From IMG/VR virus record IMGVR_UViG_3300025598_000078, positions 1 through 39,990 of that record: DNA of 39,990 nt. One strand, 5' to 3'. The stretch is from a virus. Under the pieces are notes generated by a model. That model saw only the letters and a program-made list of their open reading frames with translations, was not told the origin of the DNA and made no database searches. A program made the translations under genes and the position numbers. Positions 11,367 to 27,571 of the stretch are shown here, one piece after another; position 1 is the stretch's first letter, and every line of letters begins with the position of its first letter.

Positions 11367-11474
11367 AATATTTTCCCAGTTGGGTGGGTGACAGATGATG
11401 CGGCACTTCTTTTGAAAGTACCCTGCCACCCATTGTTACAAACTTGGCATCACACAAGTTTTAATACTATAACA

Positions 11475-11630
11475 TTAACTTTTTGAAGCTGGTTGATCTA
11501 ATTTAGCGTTTTCAGATACTTCAGGAGCAGGTGTATCGTTTACAACTGAATTACCATTCGCTTTTCCCATAAATTCACGAACTTCTTCCATGAACTTTTC
11601 TAGCTCTCTAAGAACATTTTCAATCATCAT
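11475..11630 (-). CDS. Small acidic helical protein after the capsid gene
   Basis: A 51-residue protein, MMIENVLRELEKFMEEVREF then a polar tail. The start at 11630 has AAAGGA seven bases upstream; the frame opens further upstream, but that stretch runs into a terminator hairpin. It is a likely coiled-coil helix plus a disordered tail and is not recognised. It sits directly beyond the terminator that follows the major capsid gene. Confidence 0.5.
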   Translation of the reverse strand: MMIENVLRELEKFMEEVREFMGKANGNSVVNDTPAPEVSENAKLDQPASKS

Positions 11631-11643
11631 AATTTTTTCCTTT

Positions 11644-11671
11644 AAAAAAAACCCCACAATGAAGTGGGGTT
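11644..11671 (-). terminator. Rho-independent terminator after the major capsid gene
   Basis: An 8-bp perfect stem (AACCCCAC at 11650-11657 paired with GTGGGGTT at 11664-11671) has a six-base loop and, on the minus strand, is followed by seven T residues (11644-11650). It lies 20 bases past the capsid stop. It would end most transcripts after the capsid gene and let some through, giving more capsid mRNA than mRNA for downstream neck and tail genes. Confidence 0.85.
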
Positions 11672-11692
11672 AGTTTACTTCGCGCATTAAAA

Positions 11693-12718: not shown

Positions 12719-12733
12719 AGTAAAGTTCCTTTA

Positions 12734-13381: not shown

Positions 13382-13391
13382 AATCTAATCC

Positions 13392-14252: not shown

Positions 14253-15992
14253 ATTTGATACCTCAGGGTTAGTTAATAAAACTCCGGCTGGATCGCCACC
14301 TTTATCCCATACTCCTTTAGATCCTCTAGCTTTGGTAACAATAGCTATATGATCTAAAAGAAATGGAACACCTTCTATTAAGAGTGGCTCACCATTCTCA
14401 GTAGTAAGTGTAGTGTTTCCTGCTGTATTGTCAAATACAACAGAAGGGGATGTACTAATTTCACCTTCGCAAATCTCATTAATTGCGTCTTGATCGTAAA
14501 TTTTAGCAATACCCCAAACCTCGTCACCTTTAATATAAGGCAACATAATACTTCCAACTGCTCTATCTTTGAATTCTTTTCCATTCAATACAGCAGTTTC
14601 AGGATGATCCATGATCACCATTAAACCATTACATCTTCTTAAAAATTCATCATTCAAATACAGTGATGAATCTCTCCAAACATATTCACCTATAGAACCT
14701 CTATATGCTAATCCAGTTCCAGTAATACGAATTGCCAATAGCATAATATTCGCATACATTTGTGGACTTGGCAAAACATTTGCTTTAACTAATTCTGCAA
14801 CATCCAATTCAGTTTTAATACTTGCTACTTTCATTGCTATTTCTAAACCGGGGTGCAATGGCTGTGGTGGTTGATTAACAGGACACCAATCGTATCCAGT
14901 AGATTCATAATTTAGCTTCACATCGCACTTTTCAAAACCTCTTGCAATGTAAGTACAAAATTGACCATCATCATGCAATACTTCTAGCTTGCCCTTGTAG
15001 TCAATTCCTGTTTCCTCGAAACATTCTCTACGAGCACATTCCTCTAAACTTTCATCTTTTAAATTTTGATGACCACCGGGTACTGCCCATGTGTAAGGGT
15101 AATCCCCACCATCACCTCTGCGAATCATTAAAACTTCGCCACCATCAGTTAAAAATAATATTCCTGAAGCTCTACCTTCTGCTCCAGCATCTTTAGCTAC
15201 AGGCTTGGATTCTTGAACAGGAACTTGTTCCCCATGAATATCTGAAATACTCATTGCTGAATCAGGTACACAATTAGGAACTTGTTTACCATTTTTTTCT
15301 TTCATGCCTATTTGATGATAATCTTCCCAGCATGGATCTTCATCAGGGATAGATTCTGCATAATCAATTAAAGCATCCAAGATATTGGTTAAATCATGCT
15401 TGACATCATCAGCATCACATTTCCACTTACGCAAAGATTTATTAATTCTTGAATCAGGGTCGTTAGCTGTCTTTTCTGAAGTTAATTTTTCTTTCATGCC
15501 CTTCATGCGGGCGCAAAATGACTGCTTGCGAGAGCCACCTTCAGGTTGAGGCGCTTTTAAATGCGCGCCATGTTCTCTATTGTAAGATTCGCGGCCTTTT
15601 TCATTTAAACCGCCATTTTTATTTTTACCTTCTTTAGTTTGCCATGCTTCAGAATCAGATCCAAAACGAGGAACTGGCTCGCCATTTCTAACCATAACAT
15701 CATCAGATTGCATGGCTTTTTGAAGATAATTATCTACTTTTACACCTAAAATTTTACGGCTGATCGCTTCTATCTCATGCCTAATTGAAGCAAGCTGATG
15801 CTTCGCTTCGCTTAATTCAGAGCTTTCATCTTCTATAAATTCAGGGGTACTTAATGGGGTGGGTTCTTCGGGAATTTCATCAGTAGAGTGCTTAATGAAT
15901 TTTTTTGCCACTTCTTTAGGGATGCCAATATTGCTCTTACCGCTTGCGGCAGCGTACATAGCTTTTCGTTGGGCTTCTGACTCAAATGGCAT
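13392..15992 (-). CDS. Prohead protease-scaffold fusion with DUF6321-like and Nudix domains
   Basis: An 866-residue, multi-part head maturation protein. Residues 1-35 have the MPFESEAQRKAMYAAASGKS opening. About 90-195 match DUF6321-like sequence (GLNEKGRESYNREHGAHLKAP; SRKQSFCARMKGMKEKL; TANDPDSRINKSLRKWKC), and 222-243 carry the short GMKEKNGKQVPNCVP motif. A Nudix domain occupies about 272-392, with its box at 306-330 (E314, R322, E323, E326, E327, G329) and one extra residue before E314 relative to the GX5E pattern. Residues about 402-575 look like a DUF2213 prohead protease. From 581 a scaffold follows with a run of ten Asp (708-717) and basic segments. The fusion puts nucleotide hydrolysis and capsid maturation in one chain. 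A second start probably lies at residue 581. Confidence 0.85.
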   Translation of the reverse strand: MPFESEAQRKAMYAAASGKSNIGIPKEVAKKFIKHSTDEIPEEPTPLSTPEFIEDESSELSEAKHQLASIRHEIEAISRKILGVKVDNYLQKAMQSDDVMVRNGEPVPRFGSDSEAWQTKEGKNKNGGLNEKGRESYNREHGAHLKAPQPEGGSRKQSFCARMKGMKEKLTSEKTANDPDSRINKSLRKWKCDADDVKHDLTNILDALIDYAESIPDEDPCWEDYHQIGMKEKNGKQVPNCVPDSAMSISDIHGEQVPVQESKPVAKDAGAEGRASGILFLTDGGEVLMIRRGDGGDYPYTWAVPGGHQNLKDESLEECARRECFEETGIDYKGKLEVLHDDGQFCTYIARGFEKCDVKLNYESTGYDWCPVNQPPQPLHPGLEIAMKVASIKTELDVAELVKANVLPSPQMYANIMLLAIRITGTGLAYRGSIGEYVWRDSSLYLNDEFLRRCNGLMVIMDHPETAVLNGKEFKDRAVGSIMLPYIKGDEVWGIAKIYDQDAINEICEGEISTSPSVVFDNTAGNTTLTTENGEPLLIEGVPFLLDHIAIVTKARGSKGVWDKGGDPAGVLLTNPEVSNMNENVNAPKADAQGEKLDAILSALSNLAYRVDSMEKNLPAPPLVTAADKKKAKKDDDDAMCDDDDEESESEAKKFMERKMDAKKRKDDDDDRKDAEGSDPKEHGKAGEMKPDDEGKVEHPGHMEFKKDDDDDDDDDDKKMSKKDEEAMKMDEEEAKYADAQAKADSVFSAFGKSASRPLQGESLVAYRKRLLRGLQAYSDTYKDVNLLKEIKGEKMLSIAEKQIFNDALVAAKSPAMYAADAEYEIKERDASGRTISRFKGGFGWLDSFKVPSLRVKDFNLNNNRK
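13842..13871 (-). repeat. GAT/GAC triplet tract encoding ten aspartates
   Basis: A 30-base run of aspartate codons within the scaffold part of the fusion protein. It could vary in length by slippage without loss of frame. Confidence 0.85.
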
Positions 15993-16001
15993 ATATAAAA
16001 C

Positions 16002-16802
16002 CTACTGTTGTTTCTCGGATTGTAATTCTTTTTTACCTTTTGTGGTTAAAAAATCTTCAGGTAAATCTTTTATTTTATAAATATACACATAACGACACCT
16101 ACAAAAAACAGCTTCTCCGGGCGCTATGACTTCATCAGTATATCCATTAACTGCTTTTATTAAACGCTTTTCAACAGCCCAACTACCTCTAACCAAATAA
16201 ATAATGCCATCTAACTCTTTGTGATCTTCTCGATAATTGTAATTTGCTTGACGCCAATTGCTATGCCATCTTGCTGCAATTGCGCCGTTATCTACCGCTA
16301 CAATCTCATTAATATTATTAATCAATTTATGTGTTTGGTCAATAATGACTCTACGTTCTTTAAAGTCAATAGTGGCCAAATCTTTTCGTATATTTTTCTT
16401 TTCTTTTTTCTTATCTACAATGTCAGTTCCGCCGATAGGGATACTGGTAGCCCAGCCGGCGAAACGTCTTAAAGTATTGCTGATAGTTTCTTCGCGATTA
16501 TATTTTATTAAGTTTGCTGAGGCCATGATGCGTCGATCAAGTTCGGCGCGGAGTTTAGGCTTTAATTTATCGAGAGTAAATTTAGAAACATTGTCATTAA
16601 TTAATCCGCCTTTTGTAACTAAACGTGAATAAGCTTGACCTAAAGAGCGCTCAATTTCTTTTTGCATCTCTTTTTCTGTAATTAACGATTTTACGGCGGC
16701 TTCGCGTAGTTTTTCTATCCAAAAATCAAGTCTTTTTTGGCTGTCAAAGCCATATCGCATAAAATCGGCGATGGCTGCGGTGACTACCTCATAAAAAGTC
16801 AC
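16002..16802 (-). CDS. Phage head morphogenesis protein (Mu F/SPP1 gp7-like)
   Basis: A 266-residue protein immediately downstream of the portal gene, the usual position for minor head protein F/gp7. The C-terminal part has the family's sign: W-R-Q-A-N-Y-N-Y-R-E-D-H-K-E-L-D-G then I-A-P-G-E-A-V-F-C-R-C-R-Y at about residues 230-245, a motif shared by Mu F-like proteins and thought to bind metal. The N-terminal half is helical. The protein is thought to be a few copies in the prohead and to travel with DNA into the cell in relatives. The start is 3 bases from the portal stop. Confidence 0.8.
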   Translation of the reverse strand: MTFYEVVTAAIADFMRYGFDSQKRLDFWIEKLREAAVKSLITEKEMQKEIERSLGQAYSRLVTKGGLINDNVSKFTLDKLKPKLRAELDRRIMASANLIKYNREETISNTLRRFAGWATSIPIGGTDIVDKKKEKKNIRKDLATIDFKERRVIIDQTHKLINNINEIVAVDNGAIAARWHSNWRQANYNYREDHKELDGIIYLVRGSWAVEKRLIKAVNGYTDEVIAPGEAVFCRCRYVYIYKIKDLPEDFLTTKGKKELQSEKQQ

Positions 16803-16804
16803 GT

Positions 16805-18217
16805 TTAATCCTTGGATGGTGGCTCAGTTGGTGCGGTTAGTGGAGTAGGTGGTTCATATTCAGCGATGGCTTCAATATCCAAATGCATAGTGCTTTTAAA
16901 CATATCAGGCATTTCGGCCAAATTGTCTTGCGCCCACTGAATTGCTCTTGCTCTATTTTCGCCATCAATGACAGGTAAGAGAGTTCTAAGCATTTCAGTC
17001 ATACCTTTGAGTTTAACTTCATCAGTTTTCACGCGTTCAGAAACAGGTTCTTCCATTAAACTTTGCCAACTAGGCTTAAATGCATCCTTCCAACTGTAGA
17101 AAGCTTCTTTATATGTCATATTGGCATACTTGTCAGGGTACGCTTGTTTGACTGACTCATAAAATTCTTCATTCCATGCGCGGTGTTGTACTATATTGTC
17201 AAAAAAGTCGAACAAAGTTTTCATGTCGGCTCTTATTCCTTCGACATATTGCACAATAGCTTTACTATCTTCTGTACCTTCACCAAAACCATTAGTAAAT
17301 GCTTCATCTTTAATTAACATAGCAGGTACATCTGAAGCAGCAGCAATATTGGCAATAATGTTATCTCTTGCAGTAGTCATTGCTGTATCTGTATTATTTA
17401 AATCTACAGATTCAATATCTTCATCTACATCAATACTTAAAACATTACCTGTAGTACCCTGTTGTAAATACGTACGTTTAATACCCGATGCAATTTGCAT
17501 TGCCCGATTGACAATTGACCCAGCTTGCTTTTGTTTAATAATTAAAAGTCCAGCTTTCATTGTCACCATGTCATCGGTAATCATGGACTGAACAAAAGAT
17601 TTTAAAGGGTAGAGCGCTCTTTGAAAAACTGAACGGCCAGTAAAACCATACGCTGAAGATTGAAAACTTAAATAGATGGGCGTATTGTTAAACACAACCA
17701 CAGATCTACTTGGGTGATACGGCTGACCGGCGGCAGTTACGAAAGGTAATGGTTTTTGAAAGTCGGGCGCATTAGGGTTTTGATTAGTAACAATGGATCC
17801 TGCGGTGTTTAGCGGATCGAGTTGATTAAAATACAAATTTAAATACGGCAATTTCCAAGGATCAATCGGTTCTGTTGTAGGTATGTTCTCCGCCCCAACG
17901 ACAATGGCGGCCGCGCCATATACTCTTTTTAAATATGTTACGTCGCGAATGTGGTTTGTTGCACCTAATGAATCCCACTCTCTTTGAAACGCATCGGTTA
18001 GCATTTCTTTAGGTTGAGCGTCGATATTGATACTTCTTGGTTTAGATAAAGCTAAAGTAATCGGTTTTTCAATTAATTTACCAGCTAAAGGATGGTATTC
18101 CCAAATGGTTTTGCATAACTCATATCCAGCGGGAGTACCCGGCTCAATAGTTTGAGCACTTAAAAGTTGCATTAACTGTGATGGTACTGATGAATTAGTA
18201 ACTGATAGATCAGACAT
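16805..18217 (-). CDS. Portal protein (DUF1073/gp6-like)
   Basis: A 470-residue portal. The N-terminus reads L-C-K-T-I-W-E-Y-H-P-L-A-G-K-L-I-E-K-P, and later come VYGAAAIVVG, an L-D-P-L motif and PYHPSRSVVVFN. These are typical of DUF1073 portals, in which twelve subunits form the vertex that packages and ejects DNA. It lies 10 bases after the terminase stop and just before the MuF-like gene. The C-terminal 40 residues are Pro-rich (EYEPPTPLTAPTEPPSKD). Length and order fit the family. Confidence 0.85.
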   Translation of the reverse strand: MSDLSVTNSSVPSQLMQLLSAQTIEPGTPAGYELCKTIWEYHPLAGKLIEKPITLALSKPRSINIDAQPKEMLTDAFQREWDSLGATNHIRDVTYLKRVYGAAAIVVGAENIPTTEPIDPWKLPYLNLYFNQLDPLNTAGSIVTNQNPNAPDFQKPLPFVTAAGQPYHPSRSVVVFNNTPIYLSFQSSAYGFTGRSVFQRALYPLKSFVQSMITDDMVTMKAGLLIIKQKQAGSIVNRAMQIASGIKRTYLQQGTTGNVLSIDVDEDIESVDLNNTDTAMTTARDNIIANIAAASDVPAMLIKDEAFTNGFGEGTEDSKAIVQYVEGIRADMKTLFDFFDNIVQHRAWNEEFYESVKQAYPDKYANMTYKEAFYSWKDAFKPSWQSLMEEPVSERVKTDEVKLKGMTEMLRTLLPVIDGENRARAIQWAQDNLAEMPDMFKSTMHLDIEAIAEYEPPTPLTAPTEPPSKD

Positions 18218-19519: not shown

Positions 19520-19926
19520 TAGTTTATTTTAGGCTCCGGTAATGCATTTTCTACAATAATGCGAATATCTTGAGAGCTATCACCATCCGGTTTAGCCGGT
19601 TTCCAGCCATGTAAGTGCGTCATAATTACTGTCGCCGCTTTAGTATCGCCGCTTAATGCATTTTTCATCAATGCGCCGCTAACTTCTGCTTGATTTACTG
19701 CGCGCGCGTATGTAATCATATTCGCTGCGCGGTCGTCGGCAGCGCACAAAATAGCAAAATCTGTAGGTAAATACCCTGACGATAGCGCTAAAGCATCGCC
19801 TGTAAGCCCTCTGTAAGCACTATCATAGATACGCTCTAAATCTTCTTCCGTCGCCGTTATCTTTTTGGCTTTAAAGTCAATTGAGTAAAATAAAGGGTCG
19901 GGTGAAAAACGATTTTTTGTACTCAT
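19519..19926 (-). CDS. Terminase small subunit (putative)
   Basis: A 135-residue protein immediately upstream of the large subunit and overlapping it by one base, the position of the DNA-recognising small subunit. The sequence is helical, with DLERIYDSAYRGLTGDALALSSGY near residues 30-55 and many Ala/Lys/Arg. A helix-turn-helix is plausible but not clear. It opens the late operon, directly beside the large control region, so late transcription probably starts just before it. Confidence 0.7.
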   Translation of the reverse strand: MSTKNRFSPDPLFYSIDFKAKKITATEEDLERIYDSAYRGLTGDALALSSGYLPTDFAILCAADDRAANMITYARAVNQAEVSGALMKNALSGDTKAATVIMTHLHGWKPAKPDGDSSQDIRIIVENALPEPKIN

Positions 19927-19958
19927 AATAACTTCCCGCTATTTAACAAATATGTACG

Positions 19959-19987
19959 ATATTAGCATAAAGGTTAAAAAACGCCAA
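19959..19987 (-). promoter_or_regulatory. Candidate late promoter
   Basis: On the minus strand TTGGCG (19982-19987) and TAATAT (19959-19964) are 17 bases apart, about 30 bases upstream of the small terminase start. Each matches four of six positions of sigma-70 hexamers. A 19-bp palindrome lies just upstream of the -35. Confidence 0.4.
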
Positions 19988-20000
19988 TGTAGGTTTATAG

Positions 20001-20019
20001 TGTAAAAGAATCTTTTACA
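20001..20019. promoter_or_regulatory. Operator-like palindrome, left copy
   Basis: TGTAAAAGAATCTTTTACA is a 9-bp inverted repeat around a single central base, the size expected for a dimeric repressor. A related site occurs at 20847-20865. The two lie near the two edges of the control region, beside the late and early promoters. Confidence 0.65.
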
Positions 20020-20168
20020 GTATATTTTTTAAAAAATTTTTTTTGGCTTTTTTCTAAAATGCTTTTAGCTAATGGCTAGGTGCAAAAAGGCATATAGCCA
20101 CGCAGCGGTGTGGGTAGAAAAGGAGGGGGAGGCTCATTCGATTTTGATAGACTAAAAAATCCCTTTAT

Positions 20169-20184
20169 AATCAATAACTTACGG
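20169..20184. repeat. Border repeat, left copy 1
   Basis: AATCAATAACTTACGG is the exact reverse complement of 24734-24749, on the far side of the CpG-rich gene block. It lies just before a 7-bp hairpin. Confidence 0.75.
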
Positions 20185-20212
20185 CTTTTAGCCCGCAAGC
20201 CGTCGGCCGCAA

Positions 20213-20483
20213 GCCCCTAGCTAAAAGCTAAAAGCCCCCGCCCGCAAGCCGTAAACTCTAGTAAAATCAATAACTTAGGGGCTAGATAACGCCGCCTTAT
20301 GGATTGTCAAATTGTCATAAGCCCTTAAGCCGATAGCATGAAGTTAAAAACTAGGGGCGTGAAAATTAAGGGCTAGGGGGCGGGGGTAAAAAATTAGTAA
20401 AAATACATTAGCCCCCTAGCTCTTAGCCATAACTTTTTAGCTTTTAACCCCTAACATTTAGCCCCTAGCAAAAATCCCCTAGC
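20213..20483. repeat. Cluster of CCCCTAG motifs
   Basis: The word CCCCTAG or its complement occurs at about seven places (near 20213, 20276, 20351, 20373, 20412, 20461 and 20476) within 270 bases. Two of them form a 9-bp perfect inverted repeat (CTAGGGGGC at 20373-20381 and GCCCCCTAG at 20411-20419). It could be a set of binding sites (iterons) for a phage initiator or regulator. Confidence 0.65.
20262..20276. repeat. Border repeat, left copy 2
   Basis: TAAAATCAATAACTT is the exact reverse complement of AAGTTATTGATTTTA at 24799-24813, and the same word also occurs at 24738-24752. It belongs to the inverted border repeats on both sides of the CpG-rich gene block. Confidence 0.75.
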
Positions 20484-20526
20484 ACGGCCAAAAAAGCGCC
20501 GCCCTATTTATTGCCATATTGGCAAA

Positions 20527-20557
20527 TTGTCATTACCTAAAAATTGCTCGCTATAAT
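20527..20557 (+). promoter_or_regulatory. Candidate rightward promoter upstream of the LexA box
   Basis: TTGTCA (20527-20532) and a perfect TATAAT (20552-20557) are separated by 19 bases, slightly long. Transcription would start near 20564, and the LexA box lies at about +10 to +29, where bound LexA would block the polymerase. Confidence 0.5.
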
Positions 20558-20572
20558 TACACAGTAATTTTA

Positions 20573-20592
20573 TACTGTATATATATACAGTG
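20573..20592. promoter_or_regulatory. LexA (SOS) box
   Basis: TACTGTATATATATACAGTG matches the E. coli SOS box consensus at 19 of 20 positions, including the full CTGT-N8-ACAG core and the alternating AT centre. The core is an 18-bp perfect palindrome. It lies just downstream of a TATAAT promoter facing the early genes. The alternative is a chance AT-rich palindrome, but the exact core match makes this unlikely. Confidence 0.75.
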
Positions 20593-20621
20593 GTATTTTT
20601 AAAATCTAAATAAGTAATAAG

Positions 20622-20639
20622 CATAACAATTTAACCAAT
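20622..20639 (+). repeat. 18-bp direct repeat, copy 1
   Basis: CATAACAATTTAACCAAT occurs here and again at 20755 and 20892, at spacings of 133 and 137 bases. All three copies are on the plus strand, upstream of the early operon. Confidence 0.85.
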
Positions 20640-20754
20640 TAGCCCCGCTTCCCCGTATGCTATAAAGCCCCGCCCATTGTCATAAGCCCTATTTTCATAA
20701 CCTAAAAATTGACAATAAAAACCCCTATTTTGCCAATACTAGCAAGCCCCCCGC

Positions 20755-20772
20755 CATAACAATTTAACCAAT
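20755..20772 (+). repeat. 18-bp direct repeat, copy 2
   Basis: Exact copy of the CATAACAATTTAACCAAT element. It precedes an AT-rich stretch with two TTGACA words (20807 and 20815). Confidence 0.85.
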
Positions 20773-20838
20773 GCCAAAAATAAAAAACAACAACAACAAA
20801 AATATTTTGACAATTTGACAATTATTTAAAAAAAGCGC

Positions 20839-20867
20839 TTGCAAACTGTAAAAAAATCGTTTACATT
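20839..20867 (+). promoter_or_regulatory. Candidate early promoter overlapped by operator
   Basis: TTGCAA (20839-20844) and TACATT (20862-20867) are 17 bases apart and each matches four of six sigma-70 positions. The space between them is filled by the palindrome at 20847-20865, the layout of a repressed promoter. It lies about 55 bases upstream of the first early gene. Other starts in this AT-rich stretch are possible. Confidence 0.5.
20847..20865. promoter_or_regulatory. Operator-like palindrome, right copy
   Basis: TGTAAAAAAATCGTTTACA shares the outer TGTAAAA/TTTACA half-sites and the central AATC of the site at 20001-20019 and has the same 19-base length. It sits between the -35 and -10 of a candidate early promoter. 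Confidence 0.6.
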
Positions 20868-20891
20868 AACAATATGGCGCAAGTAAAACGC

Positions 20892-20909
20892 CATAACAAT
20901 TTAACCAAT
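20892..20909 (+). repeat. 18-bp direct repeat, copy 3
   Basis: Third exact copy of CATAACAATTTAACCAAT. It ends two bases before the AGAGGG ribosome binding site region of the first early gene, so it lies in the leader of the early transcript. Confidence 0.85.
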
Positions 20910-20923
20910 ATAGAGGGCTTAGC

Positions 20924-21016
20924 ATGATAGATAAAATTTTTTATTACTTAATGGCCGCAAGCTTTACGGGCTTATTTTTATGTTTAATTGAAATGTTTAC
21001 GAGGGTATATAAATGA
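20924..21016 (+). CDS. Tiny membrane peptide, early gene 1
   Basis: A 30-residue peptide (MIDKIFYYLMAASFTGLFLC...) with one hydrophobic segment over residues 5-24. AGAGGG lies nine bases before the ATG and the stop overlaps the next start (ATGA). Not recognised. Its position as first gene of the early operon suggests a membrane-targeting or leader role, but nothing shows this directly. Confidence 0.55.
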   Translation: MIDKIFYYLMAASFTGLFLCLIEMFTRVYK

Positions 21017-21114
21017 AAACAAAAATAATTGATTATGTATTAGGCGGCCTATTTATGGCCATAACGGGCGCGCTATTGGCCTTAGTTTATATCTATAAAA
21101 CGGGGGGATTTTAA
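21013..21114 (+). CDS. Tiny membrane peptide, early gene 2
   Basis: A 33-residue peptide with a short Lys-containing N-terminus, MKTKIIDYVLGG, then a hydrophobic segment (LFMAITGALLALVYIY) and a KTGGF tail. It overlaps the previous gene by 4 bases and is preceded by GAGGG. One membrane pass is predicted. Function unknown; both tiny genes look like paired membrane peptides. Confidence 0.55.
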   Translation: MKTKIIDYVLGGLFMAITGALLALVYIYKTGGF

Positions 21115-21116
21115 TC

Positions 21117-21353
21117 ATGTCTTTACTACAAGAGATAGCAGCGCACGGCCTCGCGTATTGCGCCTATAATAACGCGCTCACTAATATTGATCAAATAAGC
21201 GATAGTCAAAAATTACGGATAGCGCAAGCGATACTGTCGGATTTATATCATCAATACGGCCATAATTGGAACAATAGCGCCGTGATCAACGCGCTATCAT
21301 GCGCGGATTCTTGCATTATCGAAGTAATTAACTTTATAGAGGAAGCGGCCTAA
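21117..21353 (+). CDS. Early protein, unknown function
   Basis: A 78-residue, mostly helical protein with several Cys (HGLAYCAYNNAL, CADSCIIEV). The ATG is 2 bases after the stop of the previous gene and the stop overlaps the next ATG, so it is translationally coupled. No family recognised. Confidence 0.65.
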   Translation: MSLLQEIAAHGLAYCAYNNALTNIDQISDSQKLRIAQAILSDLYHQYGHNWNNSAVINALSCADSCIIEVINFIEEAA

Positions 21354-21466
21354 TGTATATCGTATTTTATTCAATTCAAGGTGAGGAATATTCTATCCGC
21401 TTCAATACATTAGAGGCGGCGCAGCTATTCGCGCGCAAGTATAACGGCAAAATTCAAACCAATTAA
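21353..21466 (+). CDS. Tiny early protein, unknown
   Basis: A 37-residue peptide (MYIVFYSIQGEEYSIRFNTL...) whose ATG overlaps the previous stop. It has a beta-like start and a short helix (EAAQLFARKYNG). The mix of one strand pair and a helix resembles a very small regulator fold, but it is not recognised. Confidence 0.45.
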   Translation: MYIVFYSIQGEEYSIRFNTLEAAQLFARKYNGKIQTN

Positions 21467-21486
21467 ACAGAAAAGAGGGCGTAAAA

Positions 21487-22230
21487 ATGAGCGATAAAAC
21501 GAATGATTTTAAATTAAAAAATACAATTCATAAAATGCTAATTGAAAACACGGGGCGGCATTTTTTAGACAGTGGCGGCGCGTATGGCCGCCAATGGGAA
21601 AAGAATCAAGGTAAAACTTTAGAGGATTTTCAAAACGAAGCGCCCGCCTACTTGGATATATCAAGCGGTGTATATAACGGCGTGAAAAGCTATGATTTTA
21701 GCGTCGGCGTTAGTTTATACCATAAGCTTGTAGCTTGCTTAGAATTAGATCAATATTGTATAGAGTTTAATTCTATGGCCGTCGATAATTGGCAAAATGA
21801 TCAATTTTACGGAGTTAGCGATAGCGGCGGGGAATGGCTAGAAAATAAGGGCTTTACAGAATCGCGCGAATGGTTTACGGGCGGGTTTAATTCTTACAAT
21901 TTTAATTCTAACTTATCGCAAGATATTCAAGGGCATATTTTAGACAGTGAAAACGGGGATAAATACGTATTACTACAAATTCACGGCGGTTGTGATATTC
22001 GCGGCGGCTACACTGACGCCAAGCTTTTTAAATTTGTGGATTATTGTGAGCCATATAATTTATTTGATAGTTTTTGTTTTTTTGATGTAGGCGGCACGGC
22101 CTTAGATTACCGCGACAACGACGGCTTCACGGATAGCGAGGGCGCTTATATCAATACTGAAAAGTTAAACGAGATCGGCGCGCGAATTGGTGATTGTTTA
22201 ATTAACGGCTTTTTTAATACTGATTATTAA
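21487..22230 (+). CDS. Conserved phage early protein, unknown function
   Basis: A 247-residue protein beginning after GAGGG. The segment MLIENTGRHFLDSGGAYGRQWEKNQ at residues 18-42 resembles a conserved hypothetical family I recall from phage and plasmid accessory regions of many bacteria. Many Asp, Tyr, Asn and Gly residues (DNDGFTDSEGAY, GGCDIRGGYTDAKLF) suggest a compact, acidic, soluble fold. It is acidic overall, as DNA-mimic or host-inhibitor proteins can be, but that role is not shown. Its usual partner family is the next gene. Confidence 0.7.
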   Translation: MSDKTNDFKLKNTIHKMLIENTGRHFLDSGGAYGRQWEKNQGKTLEDFQNEAPAYLDISSGVYNGVKSYDFSVGVSLYHKLVACLELDQYCIEFNSMAVDNWQNDQFYGVSDSGGEWLENKGFTESREWFTGGFNSYNFNSNLSQDIQGHILDSENGDKYVLLQIHGGCDIRGGYTDAKLFKFVDYCEPYNLFDSFCFFDVGGTALDYRDNDGFTDSEGAYINTEKLNEIGARIGDCLINGFFNTDY

Positions 22231-22243
22231 GAGGGGCTTAAAA

Positions 22244-22528
22244 ATGATTACTCAAAGCGATTTTACAAGAGTTAATAATGATGTAAACGGGAACCCGCGT
22301 TATGTCGCGCACTTCCTAAGCTTTACACGGCCTAGCGATCTAAGCGAGTATATGGGCTTAGATAAAATAGCGCAAAAATATAACCTAGCATTAAGCCGCG
22401 CGAAAACGCTAGGCGGCCGCAAATTTAGCAATAAACAATACGGCGGCGGGATTGTGTTCACTTCTTACAATTTGCGCGAATTATGTGAGCGCGTCAATGC
22501 AATTTTAGAGGGCTTAGAAAATGAATAA
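22244..22528 (+). CDS. Conserved phage early protein, unknown
   Basis: A 94-residue protein that follows the 247-residue protein in the same operon, after GAGGGG. It contains V-N-G-N-P-R-Y-V-A-H-F-L-S-F and, near residue 65, the KFSNKQYGGGIVFTSYN segment. I recall a small protein family with this pattern near the previous gene's relatives in phages and mobile elements. Likely a single alpha/beta domain. Role unknown. Confidence 0.7.
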   Translation: MITQSDFTRVNNDVNGNPRYVAHFLSFTRPSDLSEYMGLDKIAQKYNLALSRAKTLGGRKFSNKQYGGGIVFTSYNLRELCERVNAILEGLENE

Positions 22529-22712
22529 TTATCAAAATAGATTAACTTTAGAAAAGCAAGTATTTGAATTAACCCTTGATAACTGTATGAATGATACGGC
22601 CTATAACGATAATACGCTATTCGATATTTTAAATTATGGTTTTAAGGGCTTTAAAAATATGAGTTTAGAGGAATTAAAACGCGAATTTTTTATATTAAAT
22701 GAGGGGCGCTAA
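22521..22712 (+). CDS. Small early protein, unknown
   Basis: A 63-residue helical, acidic and aromatic protein (NNYQNRLTLEKQVFELTLDNCMND...FKGFKNMSLEELKREFFIL) whose start overlaps the previous stop by 8 bases. Not recognised. Confidence 0.55.
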   Translation: MNNYQNRLTLEKQVFELTLDNCMNDTAYNDNTLFDILNYGFKGFKNMSLEELKREFFILNEGR

Positions 22713-22714
22713 AA

Positions 22715-22879
22715 ATGCGAGAATATGAAATAAAAATAAAAATTAAGCTTGATGATGAGGGTTATATTCTCAAAAATAATTGGATATATACCGCGATCGA
22801 GGAACAATTAACCTATGAGGGCGTGAAAGAGGAAATAACAGAATTTAAAATCCGCGAAATAGGGGGCGCGAATGAATAA
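22715..22879 (+). CDS. Small early protein, unknown
   Basis: A 54-residue protein (MREYEIKIKIKLDDEGYIL...), with AGGGG before the ATG. An alternating strand at the start and a helix (YTAIEEQLTYEGVKEEITEF) give a beta-alpha-beta look. It is embedded in the operon with an 8-base overlap of the next gene. Role unknown. Confidence 0.55.
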   Translation: MREYEIKIKIKLDDEGYILKNNWIYTAIEEQLTYEGVKEEITEFKIREIGGANE

Positions 22880-23075
22880 CTACTATATAAATTATAAAAA
22901 TTATCTAATAACCCTTGATCATACGCCCGCCGCCATTGTCGCAAGCGCCTTGCATGATAACGGGGATTATTTTAAACGATCGTATATATTTTATACAAAA
23001 ACGCAAATAATACGCGATATAAAGCGCGCTTGTAGTGAGCGCATTAAAAACAATTTTAAATTAGAGGATTATTAA
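22872..23075 (+). CDS. Small early protein, unknown
   Basis: A 67-residue protein with a Tyr/Asn-rich start (MNNYYINYKNYLI) and a basic second half (IRDIKRACSERIKNNF). The ribosome binding site AGGGGG lies in the preceding gene. Not recognised; the basic tail could bind nucleic acid. Confidence 0.5.
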   Translation: MNNYYINYKNYLITLDHTPAAIVASALHDNGDYFKRSYIFYTKTQIIRDIKRACSERIKNNFKLEDY

Positions 23076-23077
23076 AA

Positions 23078-23293
23078 ATGAGAAAAAATAGCAAGTATTT
23101 GACTAAACAAAATTACACGCCGCGCACTGTTAGGCTAAAAAACACGCCCTATAAAATAGCTTTACCCTATTGGTTTAATAAAGGCCTAGAATTTAATATT
23201 GGTAATATTCGCTTTAAATATGACGGCCTTGAAGTTATCGCTCTCGATAAAATCCCCGATTCATGGTTAATTGATCTAAACGCGGCCGATTAA
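23078..23293 (+). CDS. Small early protein, unknown
   Basis: A 71-residue basic protein (MRKNSKYLTKQNYTPRTVRLKNTPYKIALPYW...). It has AGAGG before its ATG and ends 19 bases before a strong terminator, so it closes the first part of the early operon. Not recognised. Confidence 0.55.
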   Translation: MRKNSKYLTKQNYTPRTVRLKNTPYKIALPYWFNKGLEFNIGNIRFKYDGLEVIALDKIPDSWLIDLNAAD

Positions 23294-23312
23294 AAAATTA
23301 TCAGTTAAAACG

Positions 23313-23334
23313 CCCCGCGCTTGCGGGGTTTTTT
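23313..23334 (+). terminator. Rho-independent terminator, early operon part 1
   Basis: A 6-bp stem CCCCGC (23313-23318) with GCGGGG (23323-23328), a GCTT loop and six T residues. It lies 20 bases after a stop and would end or weaken the early transcript before the next two genes. Confidence 0.88.
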
Positions 23335-23377
23335 GGCGGGTAATTTTGCCCGATTTTAGACAATAGAGGGTTTAAAA

Positions 23378-23512
23378 ATGAATGATGATCTATACCGCTA
23401 TATTGCGGATTATATTCTATATGAATTATTTGAGCTTAAGAAAACACGCGCGGATATTAACGCGGATATGATCGCCGCCGCGATCGAAGCTTACAACGGG
23501 GGCGCTCGATAA
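23378..23512 (+). CDS. Small acidic early protein, unknown
   Basis: A 44-residue helical protein (MNDDLYRYIADYILYELFEL...) with AGAGGG nine bases upstream. The stop shares a base with the start of the next gene. Not recognised. It begins a second transcription unit after the terminator, unless some transcripts read through. Confidence 0.5.
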   Translation: MNDDLYRYIADYILYELFELKKTRADINADMIAAAIEAYNGGAR

Positions 23513-24237
23513 TGAATAATCAATATATGAGATCGGCGCACCGCCTAGCGATCTATCGCAAGCGCGCAAGCGAAGCAAAAACTGAATATTATAAAAATTG
23601 GCGACAATGCCGCTATGGTTTAATGGCGGGTTATCGTAAAAATTTTCAACAATTTACTATGAGAGATAATGGCCGCATTTATGCCGATAGCCTCGAAGTC
23701 ATAGGCCAATATATCGGGGCGGCGGGGGATTATATGCGCCTTAAATACACGGGATATTATGCCGATAATAGCGGATTTTCTACAATCACGGGCGGCGTGG
23801 TTAAACTGCGCCATTCGCGGGGAGTGGATTATATTCCCGTTACATTTTCGAATGAATATGACGGCGTTACATTGTATTTCAACGATCGCGAGCGCGTAGA
23901 AAAGGGCGCGCAAGACCATGAAAACGCAATACGCGCGGCCGCAAGTGGCGCGGATCACCACGCCGAGCGCGAGGCCGAGCGCGAGCGCGAAAACGACGCA
24001 AAAAACGCGGCCGAGAATGAAATATACGATCTTCAAAATGAGATTAGCGAGGCCAAAAAAGCCGCGCGCGAGCTTATCCACGCGATACGCGCACAACGCG
24101 AGGCGGGCGCGATACAAGCGCCAATATGCGAGGCGCTAATCAGTAAATTAAAACAATACAAAAATGATGTTAAGGCCGCCCGCGCGCGAATCGCGGCGCT
24201 AAATGATAATTTTTGGTTATCAATAGGGGCTTATTAA
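23512..24237 (+). CDS. Early protein with long coiled coil, unknown
   Basis: A 241-residue protein. The first 135 residues form a mixed domain (MRSAHRLAIYRKRASEAKTEYY..., RIYADSLEVIGQYIGAAGDYM, VDYIPVTFSNEYDGVTLYFND). The rest (about 135-235) is very rich in Ala/Arg/Glu with long heptad-like helices (AEREAERERENDAKNAAENEI, AKKAARELIHAIRAQREAGA) and is very GCGC-rich in DNA. It is probably a dimeric coiled-coil protein. Function unknown. Confidence 0.6.
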   Translation: MNNQYMRSAHRLAIYRKRASEAKTEYYKNWRQCRYGLMAGYRKNFQQFTMRDNGRIYADSLEVIGQYIGAAGDYMRLKYTGYYADNSGFSTITGGVVKLRHSRGVDYIPVTFSNEYDGVTLYFNDRERVEKGAQDHENAIRAAASGADHHAEREAERERENDAKNAAENEIYDLQNEISEAKKAARELIHAIRAQREAGAIQAPICEALISKLKQYKNDVKAARARIAALNDNFWLSIGAY

Positions 24238-24238
24238 A

Positions 24239-24328
24239 ATGGCCATTAAAAAAGCGCGTTTTATTTTGAAATGGAAAATTTACAAACAGTTTAAATATAA
24301 ATTACACAATAGAGGGCTTTTAAAATGA
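24239..24328 (+). CDS. Tiny basic early peptide
   Basis: A 29-residue Lys/Arg-rich peptide (MAIKKARFILKWKIYKQFKY...) starting directly after the previous stop and overlapping the next start. Short and not recognised; its basic residues could bind nucleic acid or membrane. Confidence 0.4.
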   Translation: MAIKKARFILKWKIYKQFKYKLHNRGLLK

Positions 24329-24360
24329 ATGATTTTGAGATTAAACAAGAGAAAAAATAA
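24325..24360 (+). CDS. Very short early ORF (11 codons)
   Basis: MNDFEIKQEKK follows an AGAGGG element like the other early genes and overlaps the previous stop. Its coding status is uncertain; it may be a remnant or leader peptide. Confidence 0.25.
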   Translation: MNDFEIKQEKK

Positions 24361-24381
24361 AGCTATGAATTAAACCAATAC

Positions 24382-24405
24382 GCCGCCCTTAGAGGCGGCT
24401 TTTTT
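24382..24405 (+). terminator. Rho-independent terminator ending the early block
   Basis: A 6-bp stem, GCCGCC (24382-24387) with GGCGGC (24394-24399), has a CTTAGA loop followed by six T residues. It ends the rightward early operon. Confidence 0.85.
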
Positions 24406-24453
24406 ATCCGATAGCAATAAGCCCCCGCCATAAGGCGCGGCGCTTAGTAGCGG

Positions 24454-24517
24454 GCTATTGTCGCAAAAATCGCGGGCGCTAGATAGTGAAGCCGCGCGGG
24501 GTTTTTGCGAGAATAGC
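24454..24517. repeat. Imperfect inverted repeat
   Basis: Arms of 16 bases (24454-24469 and 24502-24517) match at 15 of 16 positions, enclosing a GC-rich 32-base loop. Confidence 0.6.
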
Positions 24518-24733
24518 GCCCGCGCTAGATCAAAAACGGGCGCTATTTAAGCGGGTATTGTCGCGCCTATACGCAACGCCGCGCCCGTAAGCTAACGGGC
24601 GGCGGCCTTGATCATAAGCGGCGGCCTATACCCTTATGATTAACCGCAAGCCCTAAGCCCGTAAGCCTATGATTTTAAAGCAAAAAAGCAAAATAGCGGG
24701 GGATTTTCAGTTTTTGAAAAATCCTAAAAAAGC

Positions 24734-24749
24734 CCGTAAGTTATTGATT
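24734..24749. repeat. Border repeat, right copy 1
   Basis: CCGTAAGTTATTGATT is the exact reverse complement of 20169-20184. It is part of the shared word AAGTTATTGATTTTA (24738-24752). Confidence 0.75.
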
Positions 24750-24798
24750 TTAAAAAGAAAAGAGGGTTTTCCTAGAAAATACTTTAGAAAACACCCGC

Positions 24799-24813
24799 AA
24801 GTTATTGATTTTA
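24799..24813. repeat. Border repeat, right copy 2
   Basis: AAGTTATTGATTTTA is the exact reverse complement of 20262-20276 and a direct repeat of 24738-24752, 61 bases away. Confidence 0.75.
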
Positions 24814-24991
24814 AAGGAAAAAATGAAAATCTAGGGGTTTACCCTTAGATGCACTGCAACATGATGGCCAAAAAACGGCAAGCACGCAAGCAAAATAAAT
24901 AAGCAAAGCTACAAGCCGTTGGCCATAATCTCTCACGTGTACAACTGTCATTATAACTTTTTGCGTTCGCTTTGCAATATTATGGTATCAA

Positions 24992-25153
24992 TTAAACTTT
25001 GCTAGGTCTACCGCCTTGATTACCATTGCTGCGCGACGCGGCTTCTTTGGCTGGCGATGTAGATTTACCGCCCTTTTGCCCTAAGGCCTTACCCGCAGAT
25101 GATAGCTCTGTGTACTTTAAACCACCTGAATCATTTCGTTTTGGAGTTGCCAT
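24992..25153 (-). CDS. Small basic Gly-rich protein, conserved
   Basis: A 53-residue protein (MATPKRNDSGGLKYTELSSA then GKALGQKGGKSTSPAKEAASRS). It ends in a GGRPSK-type tail like the small basic proteins I recall near replication genes in many phages and plasmids (the KGG and NGxxGGRP pattern). AAGGAAA precedes the ATG. It lies downstream of the primase on the same strand, after a pair of palindromes. Function unknown; nucleic-acid binding is plausible from its charge. Confidence 0.55.
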   Translation of the reverse strand: MATPKRNDSGGLKYTELSSAGKALGQKGGKSTSPAKEAASRSNGNQGGRPSKV

Positions 25154-25180
25154 TGTTAGTTTCCTTAATTTTCATAACCT

Positions 25181-25231
25181 AAGCGTTTGGGTTAGTGTCT
25201 ATCCTAGCACACTACCCAAGCGTTTGGGTTA
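25181..25231. repeat. Pair of operator-like palindromes
   Basis: AAGCGTTTGGGTTA occurs at 25181-25194 and at 25218-25231, each forming the right half of a near-palindrome (ACCCAAGCGTTTGGGT at 25214-25229; one mismatch in the first). They sit between the primase stop and the small basic gene and look like paired sites for a regulatory protein. Confidence 0.5.
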
Positions 25232-27571
25232 AGCACTCTTTCTTTTTATATCAAGCAATACTGCTTTAGGTTCTTGTGCAATCTCAACAGCCCTACGTAT
25301 CTCCGATTTAGTCATACCTTCAATCACATCGGGCGCTGCAAAGATATGCTTTTTGTTAGGATAATCAGACGATGCAAGGCGGCCACAATCAATCCATCCA
25401 GCTTCCTTGAGGGCATGGAGCAATGCAGCTTGCGGTATCTTCACGCCCGATGGCACTAAGGCCGATACGCGATCACATACTACATGGAACGGGCTACCAA
25501 TGATGCCACTTGCAAAATCACCACGCCGTGACTTTAATAGCTCAACGATATAAGACTCTGCCATTGAGCGACCATGCTCAATTAAGTTCATCTTGAATTC
25601 AGTTGTTTCAGGTGTTGCACCCGGATTGAACTGGCTCACATTACGCGCCTTTAGCCAAGCAGATATTTGGCCAAAGCCACCTGCGTTATACCAATCCCAC
25701 ATGTCTTTACCGGCATCATCGCTCATACGCGGTGCATTAGAAGTCAAACAAAACCAACGACGATCTTGGGATGATAAACTGATCGGAATTTGCTCATTCG
25801 AGAACGCCAGCACAAACAAACGATTGGCCATCTGATAAGGATGCAAGCCCTTACGATTAATGTTCAGCATTTCCGGTGGCGCTGCAATGATTGGCTTAAG
25901 TTTGTTAGCAAGCGCCCGACGCGATGCGGCGTCAGGCTCCTTAAGTTCATTGATGATAAGAATCTCAGATTCAAGATCATAGCCCCACTGCGAGCCGATG
26001 GTATCGTTATCCATGTAGCCACGATTTTTAAGGCGTGAGCCACAAACTGACCAAATAAAAGGCGCCCACATCGTGTCTTTACCACAACCCTCATCACCCA
26101 CATGCAATACGGCATGGTTAATTTTAATGGCTGGGTTCTGCAACTTAAAAGCCATCAAATCAAACACGTGCTTACGGCTATCTTCATCAGGGATTAATCT
26201 TTCTACAAGATCAAACCAACGGCTAATATCACCTACCTTAATATTAGATACATCAGGCCGCGCATCCATCCAGCGGTTGCCGTAAATGTCACTCTCGCGC
26301 CCTACGAACACAGACTCTCCAGCAGCGTAGGTTAAGCCAACTAACGCCTTAGAATCATGCGCCTGACGGCCTTCGTCAAACGCGATAGAGGCCTCTACCT
26401 TACGCCCTGTGTGAATCGATTTGCAATGAATATGACGGAACAGCGCGTTAAATGTTCCACGTGAAACTTCACGGCGGTCAATAATATCAAAGTAAGCATC
26501 ATCATCTTGCACATAAGCGAAACGCTCATACCAATGCTGACGCTCGATGCGACCTAACTCCTTGCGCTCGATCTCGGCTAACAACTCCGTAGTGGTGTTA
26601 GAGAACATATCGGATGGTGTGATCTTAGCAAGCGCGTTACTAAATACTTCCGTGAGCAACTCAGGTCTAACTCCCGGCTCATGCTGCGGCGCGCCTTGCA
26701 GTGCTGCCCAGTTCAAAAAGTCACGTGAGTTAAATCCCGTGCAATGTTCATGGTAGCAACAGTAAGCGCGGTTCACAGGATGATAGCGCCCCATTGGATT
26801 GCCATCACTATGTTCGGCATAGTTAGGGCATACCACACCATACCATCCTGATGGATTGGCGTTCTCTAACAGCAAAGAATTCTCGCTCAACCAGTTCAAA
26901 ATATCATCGCTGCCATCATCCACAAGCTGAATGGTTCGCATCGAGGAAGTATCCGCTATGTCAGGCTCAACGCCCAAAGCATCGCAGATTTGGTCTAAGG
27001 TGAATTCGTTAGCAGGGTTAAAAAACACTAACTTGGATTCAAAATTATTTTTACCGGGCTTGAGATTAATCGAGCCGGGGATACGGAAGTTACGCACTGC
27101 GTTAATTGCTCCGCCATCCGTAAATCCTGCATTAGCGATTGCTTTGATAGCCGCGCAGAATTCGCCCTTCGTTGGCTGCTCAATAAAAACATAACCCCAC
27201 TGAAAGTTATTCGGTGAGGTTTCTATTTTCCATGTTGGCTCAAGTGGGGGCATCTTAGATTTAGTGCCAATGTCATCTAGCACCATGACCGCAACGTATT
27301 CGCAATTAGCGGCGGATGCAGCTACACGCCCATCGACAAAACGATCAATCATAAAAGATCCCGTGTTGCCGTACCAAGCACCGCCCGGTCTAAATCGCTC
27401 CGGCAGATAGGCTGGCCATGTGTATTTTAAAGTTCCATCGTTGTGAGTGGCTTGTTCACCAGCAACCATCACAGGCTTTTGACGCACTACTAAGAGAGTT
27501 TCTCCTTCAACCGCTAATTTTTGTAGGTATTCAACAAATTCTAATGATGTGATATTATTATTTCCAGCCAT
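25229..27571 (-). CDS. Primase-helicase (RepB-like primase + DUF5906/SF3-type ATPase)
   Basis: A 780-residue replication protein. The N-terminal part (about 60-215) resembles RepB-like primases of the archaeo-eukaryotic primase fold, with the motifs T-W-K-I-E-T-S-P-N-N-F-Q-W-G-Y and R-N-F-R-I-P-G-S-I-N-L-K-P-G. A Cys/His segment (RAYCCYHEHCTGFN, about 275) may be a zinc-binding site. The helicase part has Walker A GDEGCGKD at about 490-500 and then a D/E-rich LIINELKEPDAASRRALANKL segment with arginine motifs (SSQDRRWFC). Such fusions open origins and lay primers. It is the last large gene of the replication block. Confidence 0.85.
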   Translation of the reverse strand: MAGNNNITSLEFVEYLQKLAVEGETLLVVRQKPVMVAGEQATHNDGTLKYTWPAYLPERFRPGGAWYGNTGSFMIDRFVDGRVAASAANCEYVAVMVLDDIGTKSKMPPLEPTWKIETSPNNFQWGYVFIEQPTKGEFCAAIKAIANAGFTDGGAINAVRNFRIPGSINLKPGKNNFESKLVFFNPANEFTLDQICDALGVEPDIADTSSMRTIQLVDDGSDDILNWLSENSLLLENANPSGWYGVVCPNYAEHSDGNPMGRYHPVNRAYCCYHEHCTGFNSRDFLNWAALQGAPQHEPGVRPELLTEVFSNALAKITPSDMFSNTTTELLAEIERKELGRIERQHWYERFAYVQDDDAYFDIIDRREVSRGTFNALFRHIHCKSIHTGRKVEASIAFDEGRQAHDSKALVGLTYAAGESVFVGRESDIYGNRWMDARPDVSNIKVGDISRWFDLVERLIPDEDSRKHVFDLMAFKLQNPAIKINHAVLHVGDEGCGKDTMWAPFIWSVCGSRLKNRGYMDNDTIGSQWGYDLESEILIINELKEPDAASRRALANKLKPIIAAPPEMLNINRKGLHPYQMANRLFVLAFSNEQIPISLSSQDRRWFCLTSNAPRMSDDAGKDMWDWYNAGGFGQISAWLKARNVSQFNPGATPETTEFKMNLIEHGRSMAESYIVELLKSRRGDFASGIIGSPFHVVCDRVSALVPSGVKIPQAALLHALKEAGWIDCGRLASSDYPNKKHIFAAPDVIEGMTKSEIRRAVEIAQEPKAVLLDIKRKSA

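What the first reader, a model, noticed from the sequence alone, without database searches (positions are those of the whole stretch)
20169..24813. CpG-rich gene cassette bounded by inverted repeats
Seen: AATCAATAACTTACGG at 20169-20184 is the exact complement of 24734-24749, and TAAAATCAATAACTT at 20262-20276 is the exact complement of 24799-24813. The repeats lie at both ends of a cassette of about 14 rightward genes. CCGCAAGCC and CCCTAGC words are also shared by both borders. The cassette differs from the rest in base use (GCGC and CGCG are dense, while they are rare in the first 9.9 kb). Inference: a separately acquired module or a replication or recombination unit with paired border sites. 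None of the genes has a function I can name.
Basis: partly seen in the sequence, partly recalled or inferred. Interest (0 to 1): 0.75.

Follow-up and report, generated by a model that had tools for sequence, protein, structure and literature searches.

The report
Early-gene island of a lake phage
A 4.6-kb block of small genes in an uncultured contractile-tailed phage differs sharply in DNA composition from the rest of its genome, is edged by matching inverted repeats, and carries relatives of genes that other phages keep at their genome ends and use first, so it is probably the phage's own host-takeover module rather than a recent arrival.

Summary
Two exact inverted-repeat pairs flank the cassette. 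The 12-mer AATCAATAACTT occurs four times in the window, all at the borders (0.015 expected), and a relative (G1, TerL 94%) has the four sites at the same positions, order and spacing and nowhere else in 47 kb bar one chance-level match. CpG o/e is 2.0 in the cassette, 0.28 in tail genes, about 1.1 in neighbours. Segmentation places the island at 19,850-24,835, so the right edge meets the repeat. One detail is wrong: CCCTAGC is only on the left.

A recent, separately acquired module is not supported. Relatives that cover the slot hold a rightward, CpG-raised cassette there, with partial gene turnover; more distant ones lack the repeats. No integrase, invertase, HTH_3 repressor or ParA was found.

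Best reading: a resident early accessory (host-takeover/counter-defence) module beside terS, at the expected first-injected end. One gene is a TreK homologue (kayvirus terminal-repeat protein); another belongs to a family found near genome ends, next to an anti-restriction gene in one phage. A LexA consensus box lies once per genome in the divergent promoter region of most relatives. The repeats are conserved DNA sites, possibly marking the terminal region; that step is inferred.

The parts
20166..20184 (+). R1, outer left border repeat TATAATCAATAACTTACGG
   Evidence: present at the same place in L020 as TAAAATCAAATACTT
20262..20276 (+). R2, inner left border repeat TAAAATCAATAACTT
   Evidence: identical core in L020
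24658..24679 (-). F0, diverged third copy at the right border (CCCGTAAGCCTATGATTTTAAA on + strand)
   Evidence: family D2; conserved in L020
24734..24752 (-). F1, inner right border repeat
   Evidence: one search shows the L020 counterpart
24799..24813 (-). F2, outer right border repeat
   Evidence: in L020 it shares the variant TAAAATCAAATACTT with R1
20573..20592 (.). LexA-type SOS box TACTGTATATATATACAGTG, one mismatch to the E. coli consensus
   Evidence: perfect 20-mer once each in G1, G2, L006, L007, L008, always in the terS/cassette intergenic region
20619..20909 (+). three direct copies of ATAACAATTTAACCAAT (20619, 20752, 20889), leader of the cassette operon
   Evidence: family D6
20833..20871 (+). 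candidate cassette promoter TTGCAA-17-TACATT overlapping a TGTAAA-N7-TTTACA dyad; a sister dyad is at 20001 before terS
   Evidence: read by eye, conserved in L020; dyads; not called by the consensus scan
20924..21115 (+). two tiny ORFs (30 and 33 aa), hydrophobic, probably membrane peptides; first genes of the cassette
   Evidence: translation; similar short hydrophobic first ORF in L020, L008 and L126
21117..21353 (+). 78-aa protein, no family
   Evidence: dN/dS 0.19 against L020
21487..22230 (+). 247-aa protein of phrog_11344, found mostly near genome ends in isolate phages
   Evidence: AF2 model pLDDT 90, no PDB match
22244..22528 (+). 94-aa TreK homologue (PF24229)
   Evidence: 69.5 bits against a cut-off of 22
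22521..23293 (+). four small genes (63, 54, 67, 71 aa), no family above threshold
   Evidence: three tested have dN/dS 0.06-0.34
23378..23512 (+). 44-aa ORF
23512..24237 (+). 241-aa coiled-coil protein, phrog_8188-like
   Evidence: homologues in L020, L008, L010, L122; low-confidence model
24382..24408 (+). intrinsic terminator of the cassette operon
   Evidence: conserved in L020
24448..24527 (.). long conserved hairpin, noncoding
   Evidence: I4; region z -3.8; kept in L020, L008 and L011
20140..20165 (.). conserved element upstream of terS (CGATTTTGATAGrC-A-rich-CCC)
   Evidence: exact or near-exact in L006, L008, L010, L012, L021
19519..19926 (-). terS-like gene, left neighbour
   Evidence: position next to terL; conserved in relatives
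25229..27571 (-). primase/helicase, right neighbour beyond a 53-aa ORF (24992-25153)

Best explanation
The cassette is the phage's own early accessory module: a leftover-free operon of about 14 small genes, divergent from the late operon (terS leftward) and convergent with the replication operon, serving host takeover or counter-defence just after DNA entry. Shown: position, orientation, conservation of the slot, gene turnover, TreK and phrog_11344 homology, purifying selection on the genes, the compositional island and the conserved border DNA. Inferred from established knowledge of lambda-like packaging, where the start site lies beside terS: DNA just upstream of terS is packaged last and injected first, so the cassette enters first. 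Inferred: expression is driven rightward from the 20.55-20.87 kb region, is at least partly under host LexA, and ends at the 24.38 kb terminator. Inferred and weakest (about 0.25): the paired inverted repeats are sites read by a phage protein at the two edges of the terminal region, as the inverted 12-mers at the edges of Twort-like terminal repeats are.
For: Slot conserved with partial gene turnover in L020, L008, L010, L011, L012 and probably L126. CpG is raised in the slot in each. PF24229 TreK match; isolate homologues are 230 Staphylococcus records, 3 Aeromonas and 1 Oceanotoga, with TreK annotated inside the 8455-bp LTR of Staph1N. Kayvirus LTR genes are the earliest transcribed (PMC11598898). 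phrog_11344 relatives lie at 45.8 of 49.2 kb and 89.1 of 92.6 kb in Saintus and ClubL, and in Saintus next to an annotated anti-restriction gene. Twort-like phages carry inverted 12-mers at the LTR/unique junctions (PMC7596081). All four border sites conserved in G1 in place and spacing (95/61 against 96/61). dN/dS 0.06-0.34 for seven cassette genes; right-border DNA has dS 0.27 against about 0.7-1.6 in the genes, i.e. DNA-level constraint. LexA 20-mer once per genome at the same place.
Against: No transcription, injection or end-mapping data. No cassette protein has a demonstrated function; the 247-aa model matches nothing solved. TreK itself is of unknown function. In Aeromonas phage 4L372D the TreK relative lies in a small-gene cluster not annotated as a terminal repeat. 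The repeats are missing in L008/L010/L011 and L012, which keep the slot, so they are not needed for it. Contig ends in relatives do not converge on one point beside terS.
Confidence: 0.55

Rival explanations
1. Regulatory reading: the border repeats are operators for a phage or host DNA-binding protein that isolates or coordinates the divergent and convergent transcription units, with no role in DNA ends or recombination.
For: Both borders are intergenic control regions between operons; the left one is dense in other control elements (LexA box, TGTAAA-N7-TTTACA dyads at 20001 and 20847, three 17-bp direct repeats). R1 overlaps the best sigma70-like match of the region, TTGATA-16-TATAAT. R1 and F2 share the same two-base variant in L020, as expected of sites read by one protein.
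Against: R2, F1 and F2 have no recognisable -35 partner. No HTH_3 repressor was detected. F1 and F2 lie downstream of the cassette terminator, an odd place for operators.
Confidence: 0.3
2. Mobile or recently acquired module: the cassette was inserted as a unit with its border repeats, or is exchanged or inverted by recombination at them.
For: Sharp compositional island whose right edge meets the repeat; codon usage unlike the rest (CGC 0.67 of Arg against 0.00 in tail genes, GGC 0.59 against 0.08); partial gene turnover in the slot.
Against: Relatives hold a raised-CpG cassette in the slot; noncoding borders share the signature; no empty slot found; same orientation in both lineages that have the repeats; no PF00589 or PF00239 hit in four genomes; repeats absent from other lineages with homologous genes.
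Confidence: 0.08
3. SOS-controlled dormancy: the phage is temperate without integration, with host LexA acting as the repressor of the divergent region, as in GIL01, and the cassette is the switch module.
For: Consensus LexA box exactly once per genome at the switch-like position in most of the closer relatives; no integrase, HTH_3 or ParA detected. GIL01 uses host LexA plus a small phage protein (PMC4551915).
Against: The box is degenerate in L010 and absent in L012, which are otherwise alike. No maintenance genes recognised. Host unknown, so its LexA motif is unknown.
Confidence: 0.15
4. Chance plus low complexity: the repeats are fortuitous in an intergenic region rich in short repeated words.
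For: The left region is built of short words; relatives carry 7-bp tandem arrays there.
Against: 4 copies against 0.015 expected; all four kept in G1 at the same positions.
Confidence: 0.04

Closest known systems
Kayvirus (Twort-like) long terminal repeats with tre genes
   Same: Cluster of small genes, mostly in one direction, including a TreK homologue, bounded by short inverted repeats; in kayviruses it is transcribed first.
   Different: 4.6 kb against about 8 kb; only one of the genes is recognisably a Tre protein; phage of about 47-50 kb (G1, G2) with unrelated late genes; terminal redundancy not shown here; border sequences unrelated.
[quoted passage not shown]
   Same: Small early genes of mostly unknown function in one block (PMC6873191).
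   Different: No sequence match to its genes was found; no evidence of redundancy.
Right-end early accessory region of Fromanvirus (cluster A) and Smoothievirus phages
   Same: phrog_11344 gene among many small genes close to one genome end, next to an anti-restriction gene in Saintus.
   Different: Other genes unrelated; those phages have defined ends in the record, this one does not.
LexA-regulated phages such as GIL01
   Same: A host-LexA-type box in the phage's switch-like promoter region (PMC4551915).
   Different: Different phage class and LexA motif; no evidence of lysogeny; binding untested.
Late-gene relatives: Pantoea phage PdC23 (Certevirus), Klebsiella phage Chronis, Yersinia vB_YenM phages
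   Same: TerL 54-55% identical, similar head-tail gene order.
   Different: In the Yersinia phage the region upstream of terS holds lysis genes and a lambda-like early region with cI, cII, N and O; no such cassette seen.

Membership tests
TreK (PF24229), for the gene at 22244-22528 | Profile match above the curated cut-off | tested here: met
   69.5 bits against 22, E 2.4e-19
Twort-like long terminal repeat | Cluster of small, mostly co-directional genes including tre genes | tested here: inconclusive
   About 14 small rightward ORFs, one Tre homologue
Twort-like long terminal repeat | Inverted repeats at the repeat/unique junctions | tested here: inconclusive
   Inverted repeats flank the cassette and are conserved in G1, but that they are junctions is unknown
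Twort-like long terminal repeat | Present at both ends of virion DNA | not testable with these tools
   Needs reads or virion DNA; G2 assembles as a circle with a 120-bp overlap, which fits terminal repeats, permuted headful DNA and cos alike
Twort-like long terminal repeat | Transcribed first | not testable with these tools
   No transcriptome
Mobile element with terminal inverted repeats | Recombinase in the unit or the genome | tested here: not met
   No PF00589 or PF00239 in G000-G003; transposase families were not searched separately, but the cassette proteins show no such Pfam match
Mobile element with terminal inverted repeats | Relatives with an empty site | tested here: not met
   No relative covering the slot is empty
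SOS-regulated operator (LexA box) | CTGT-N8-ACAG close to the consensus in a promoter region | tested here: met
SOS-regulated operator (LexA box) | Binding by host LexA and induction by DNA damage | not testable with these tools
   Host unknown

The most novel reading that the evidence does not exclude
The repeats bound a long direct terminal repeat of about 4.6 kb carrying takeover genes in a phage under 50 kb of a Gram-negative host, built on the same plan as the kayvirus terminal repeats, with the cassette under host LexA and kept in a DNA composition of its own by DNA-level selection.
Probability: 0.15. Interest if true: 0.75.

Novelty: new variant of a known kind. Interest (0 to 1): 0.45.

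Why it matters
It gives an uncultured lake-phage group a defined early module to test for counter-defence genes. It links a Staphylococcus terminal-repeat protein (TreK) to small phages with Gram-negative relatives. It also shows a phage genome in which CpG content and codon use change sevenfold between modules and are kept that way across diverged relatives, in coding and noncoding DNA alike, which argues against reading every compositional island as a recent transfer.

Tried and rejected
Recent acquisition or mobile unit: rejected on slot conservation, dS of about 1 and absence of recombinases. Genome end located by contig ends: ends in relatives scatter, and two fall in tandem arrays, so no terminus could be read. 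CCGG avoidance as a sign of first entry: CCGG is absent from the cassette of W and L020 against about 15 expected from trinucleotides, but a codon-preserving shuffle expects only 2.9 in the window's genes (P 0.03), so I do not lean on it. Translational adaptation as the cause of the composition: unlikely, since ATA and CTA rise together with CGC and GGC and noncoding DNA shows the same signature. Protein-coding explanation of the right border: the 59-codon ORF 24669-24848 is open in both genomes with dN/dS 0.42 but a very low dS, so DNA-level constraint is more likely. Border repeats as promoters in general: only R1 has a -35 partner. Rfam: nothing above gathering scores. Structure search of the 247-aa protein: no match. 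Model of the 241-aa protein: low confidence. PADLOC: no hits. TreK in bacterial genomes: none found. Plasmids with the 247-aa gene: none. Search for further phages with the right-border DNA: only G1, G2 and L008. Paired repeats of another sequence in L008 and L012: none clearly above shuffles.
Full report
What the window is. It is a 39,990-base virus record of a contractile-tailed phage. Late genes run leftward from 19.9 kb (terS-like, terL, portal, protease/NUDIX fusion, capsid, sheath, baseplate). The cassette runs rightward from 20.9 to 24.3 kb. A replication block runs leftward from 31.4 to 25.2 kb (DUF2800/PD-(D/E)XK protein, family A polymerase, primase/helicase), and an SNF2 helicase and small genes run rightward from 31.9 kb. 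TerL is 54-55% identical to Pantoea PdC23, Yersinia and Klebsiella phages. Relatives come from IMG/VR contigs: L005 and L026 (98% DNA), L020 (TerL 94%, record G1, 47,309 b), L006-L011 (84%; G2 is a circle of 49,477 b judged by a 120-bp end overlap), L012 (81%) and others. The host is unknown.

Check of the repeats. The coordinates are exact. The core AATCAATAACTT occurs four times in the window, at 20169 and 20265 on the plus strand and at 24738 and 24799 on the minus strand, against 0.015 expected in shuffles. A third, diverged right-hand copy precedes them. G1 has the same four sites in the same order, with spacings of 95 and 61 against 96 and 61, and only one other match with up to two mismatches in 47 kb. 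In G1 the outer left and outer right sites share the variant CAAATACTT where the window has CAATAACTT at both. This parallel change hints that the outer pair is read together; with two genomes it is only a hint. G2, L008, L010 and L012 do not have the sites. CCCTAGC is not shared by both borders as claimed; CCGCAAGCC is.

Check of the composition. CpG o/e is 2.0 in the cassette, 1.0-1.5 in its flanking noncoding DNA, about 1.1 in the packaging and replication blocks, 0.6 in the head block and 0.28 in the tail block. GpC is 2.0 in the cassette and both borders; AC and GA are low throughout the island. A likelihood segmentation trained on the inner cassette returns 19850-24835 in the window, 11552-16928 in L020 (outer repeats at 11936 and 16798) and 11786-15809 in L011. 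The right edge meets the repeat in the window; the left edge lies about 300 bp outside it. Codon use follows: CGC is 67% of arginine codons against 0% in the tail block, GGC 59% against 8%, GCG 50% against 2%, while ATA and CTA rise too. The signature covers coding and noncoding DNA and is not what translational selection would give. In L008 and L010 the cassette stands at about 1.6-1.9 against 0.8-1.1 elsewhere, in L012 at about 1.3-1.4 at its peak against 0.7-1.1. The regime belongs to the locus and not to one event.

Is it acquired? Each relative that covers the slot between terS and the primase region has rightward small genes there. Some are homologous: the 247-aa protein in L020 and L012, the 241-aa protein in L020, L008 and L010, the TreK homologue in L008 and L010; others are replaced. 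Synonymous divergence between the window and L020 genes is about 0.7-1.6 and dN/dS is 0.06-0.34, so the genes are old residents under purifying selection. No empty slot was seen. No tyrosine integrase, serine resolvase, HTH_3 or ParA-like AAA_31 family was found in four genomes, while the control genomes gave hits. I judge acquisition as a unit unlikely.

What the genes say. The 94-aa protein at 22244 matches PF24229, Staphylococcus phage terminal repeat-encoded TreK, at 69.5 bits against a cut-off of 22. Its isolate homologues are 230 Staphylococcus phage records, three Aeromonas and one Oceanotoga; in Staph1N treK lies inside the annotated 8455-bp LTR. In phage K these LTR genes are the first transcribed and are linked to host takeover (PMC11598898). 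Twort-like genomes carry inverted 12-mers at the ends of the non-redundant part (PMC7596081). The 247-aa protein belongs to phrog_11344, widespread in viral contigs (151 relatives) and absent from the plasmid set. In Mycobacterium phage Saintus it is gp90, about 3 kb from the right end and next to an annotated anti-restriction gene; in Gordonia phage ClubL it is about 3 kb from the right end; in Erythrobacter phage vB_EliS-L02 it is about 9 kb from the end of the record. A confident AF2 model (pLDDT 90) matches no solved structure. No other cassette protein has a Pfam or PADLOC match.

Control DNA. The divergent region between terS and the cassette holds a 20-bp palindrome, TACTGTATATATATACAGTA, which is the E. 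coli LexA consensus (motif from general knowledge; the string occurs in LexA papers). It is perfect in G1, G2, L006, L007 and L008 and has one mismatch in the window and L005, once per genome or fragment and always in this place; it is degenerate in L010 and absent from L012. Whether the unknown host's LexA binds it, and which operon it controls, is untested. Three direct 17-mers and two TGTAAA-N7-TTTACA dyads, one before terS and one over the likely cassette promoter, are also here. An element upstream of terS, CGATTTTGATAGGCAAAAAAACCCC, is exact or nearly so in L006, L008, L010, L012 and L021; its role is unknown, and terS binding or packaging is a fair guess. The right border holds the operon terminator and a long hairpin kept in L020, L008 and L011 with a few compensating changes. 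Between the window and L020 the right-border DNA around the repeats is 87% identical, against 66-82% for the genes.

Mechanism proposed. In phages of the lambda plan the packaging start lies at or beside terS, and the DNA on the far side of it is packaged last and injected first. If that holds here, the cassette is the first DNA to enter, is transcribed rightward at once, and its small products act on the host or its defences; the late operon fires later in the other direction. The pairs of inverted repeats would be sites for one protein at both edges of this terminal region. An inverted arrangement would suit opposite-strand nicking at the two ends of a direct terminal repeat, as may be the case for kayvirus LTRs. 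I put the early-module claim at 0.55 and the end-site claim at about 0.25; an operator role is about as likely.

Verdict. A real, well-described compositional and architectural unit, ordinary in kind (an early accessory module), unusual in its composition, its conserved paired repeats, its TreK gene and its LexA box. New variant of a known kind; interest 0.45.

Noticed in passing
L018 1-278; L021 339-395; L017 right end (oriented): The intergenic region upstream of terS carries 7-bp tandem arrays in relatives (TACCGGC x39, GCTAACA x8); contigs L017 and L018 end inside them.
   Followed up: partly
window 1-9900: The tail block has no GCGC, CGCG or GGCC at all, and CATG is low (9 against 24 expected), which may reflect restriction avoidance different from the rest of the genome.
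   Followed up: partly
window 19596-25621; L020 oriented 11307-17041: No CCGG over about 6 kb around the cassette in both genomes; partly explained by codon use.
   Followed up: partly
window 24448-24527: A long conserved noncoding hairpin beyond the cassette terminator, found in only three other viral contigs.
   Followed up: partly
window 4225-5922: A tape-measure-like protein matches an endolysin family at its C-terminus (phrog_2649, residues 423-539).
   Followed up: no
window 13392-15992: A single 866-aa ORF joins a segment widespread in phages, a NUDIX hydrolase and a head maturation protease.
   Followed up: no
L126, L127: Close TerL relatives (79% and 68%) lie in metagenome bins labelled Mucilaginibacter and Bacteroidetes; this may be mis-binning and does not fix the host.
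   Followed up: no
L031 319-3720 (G1): G1 carries ORFs that look like glycosyltransferase and methyltransferase genes beside its tail genes; not searched against a family library.
   Followed up: no
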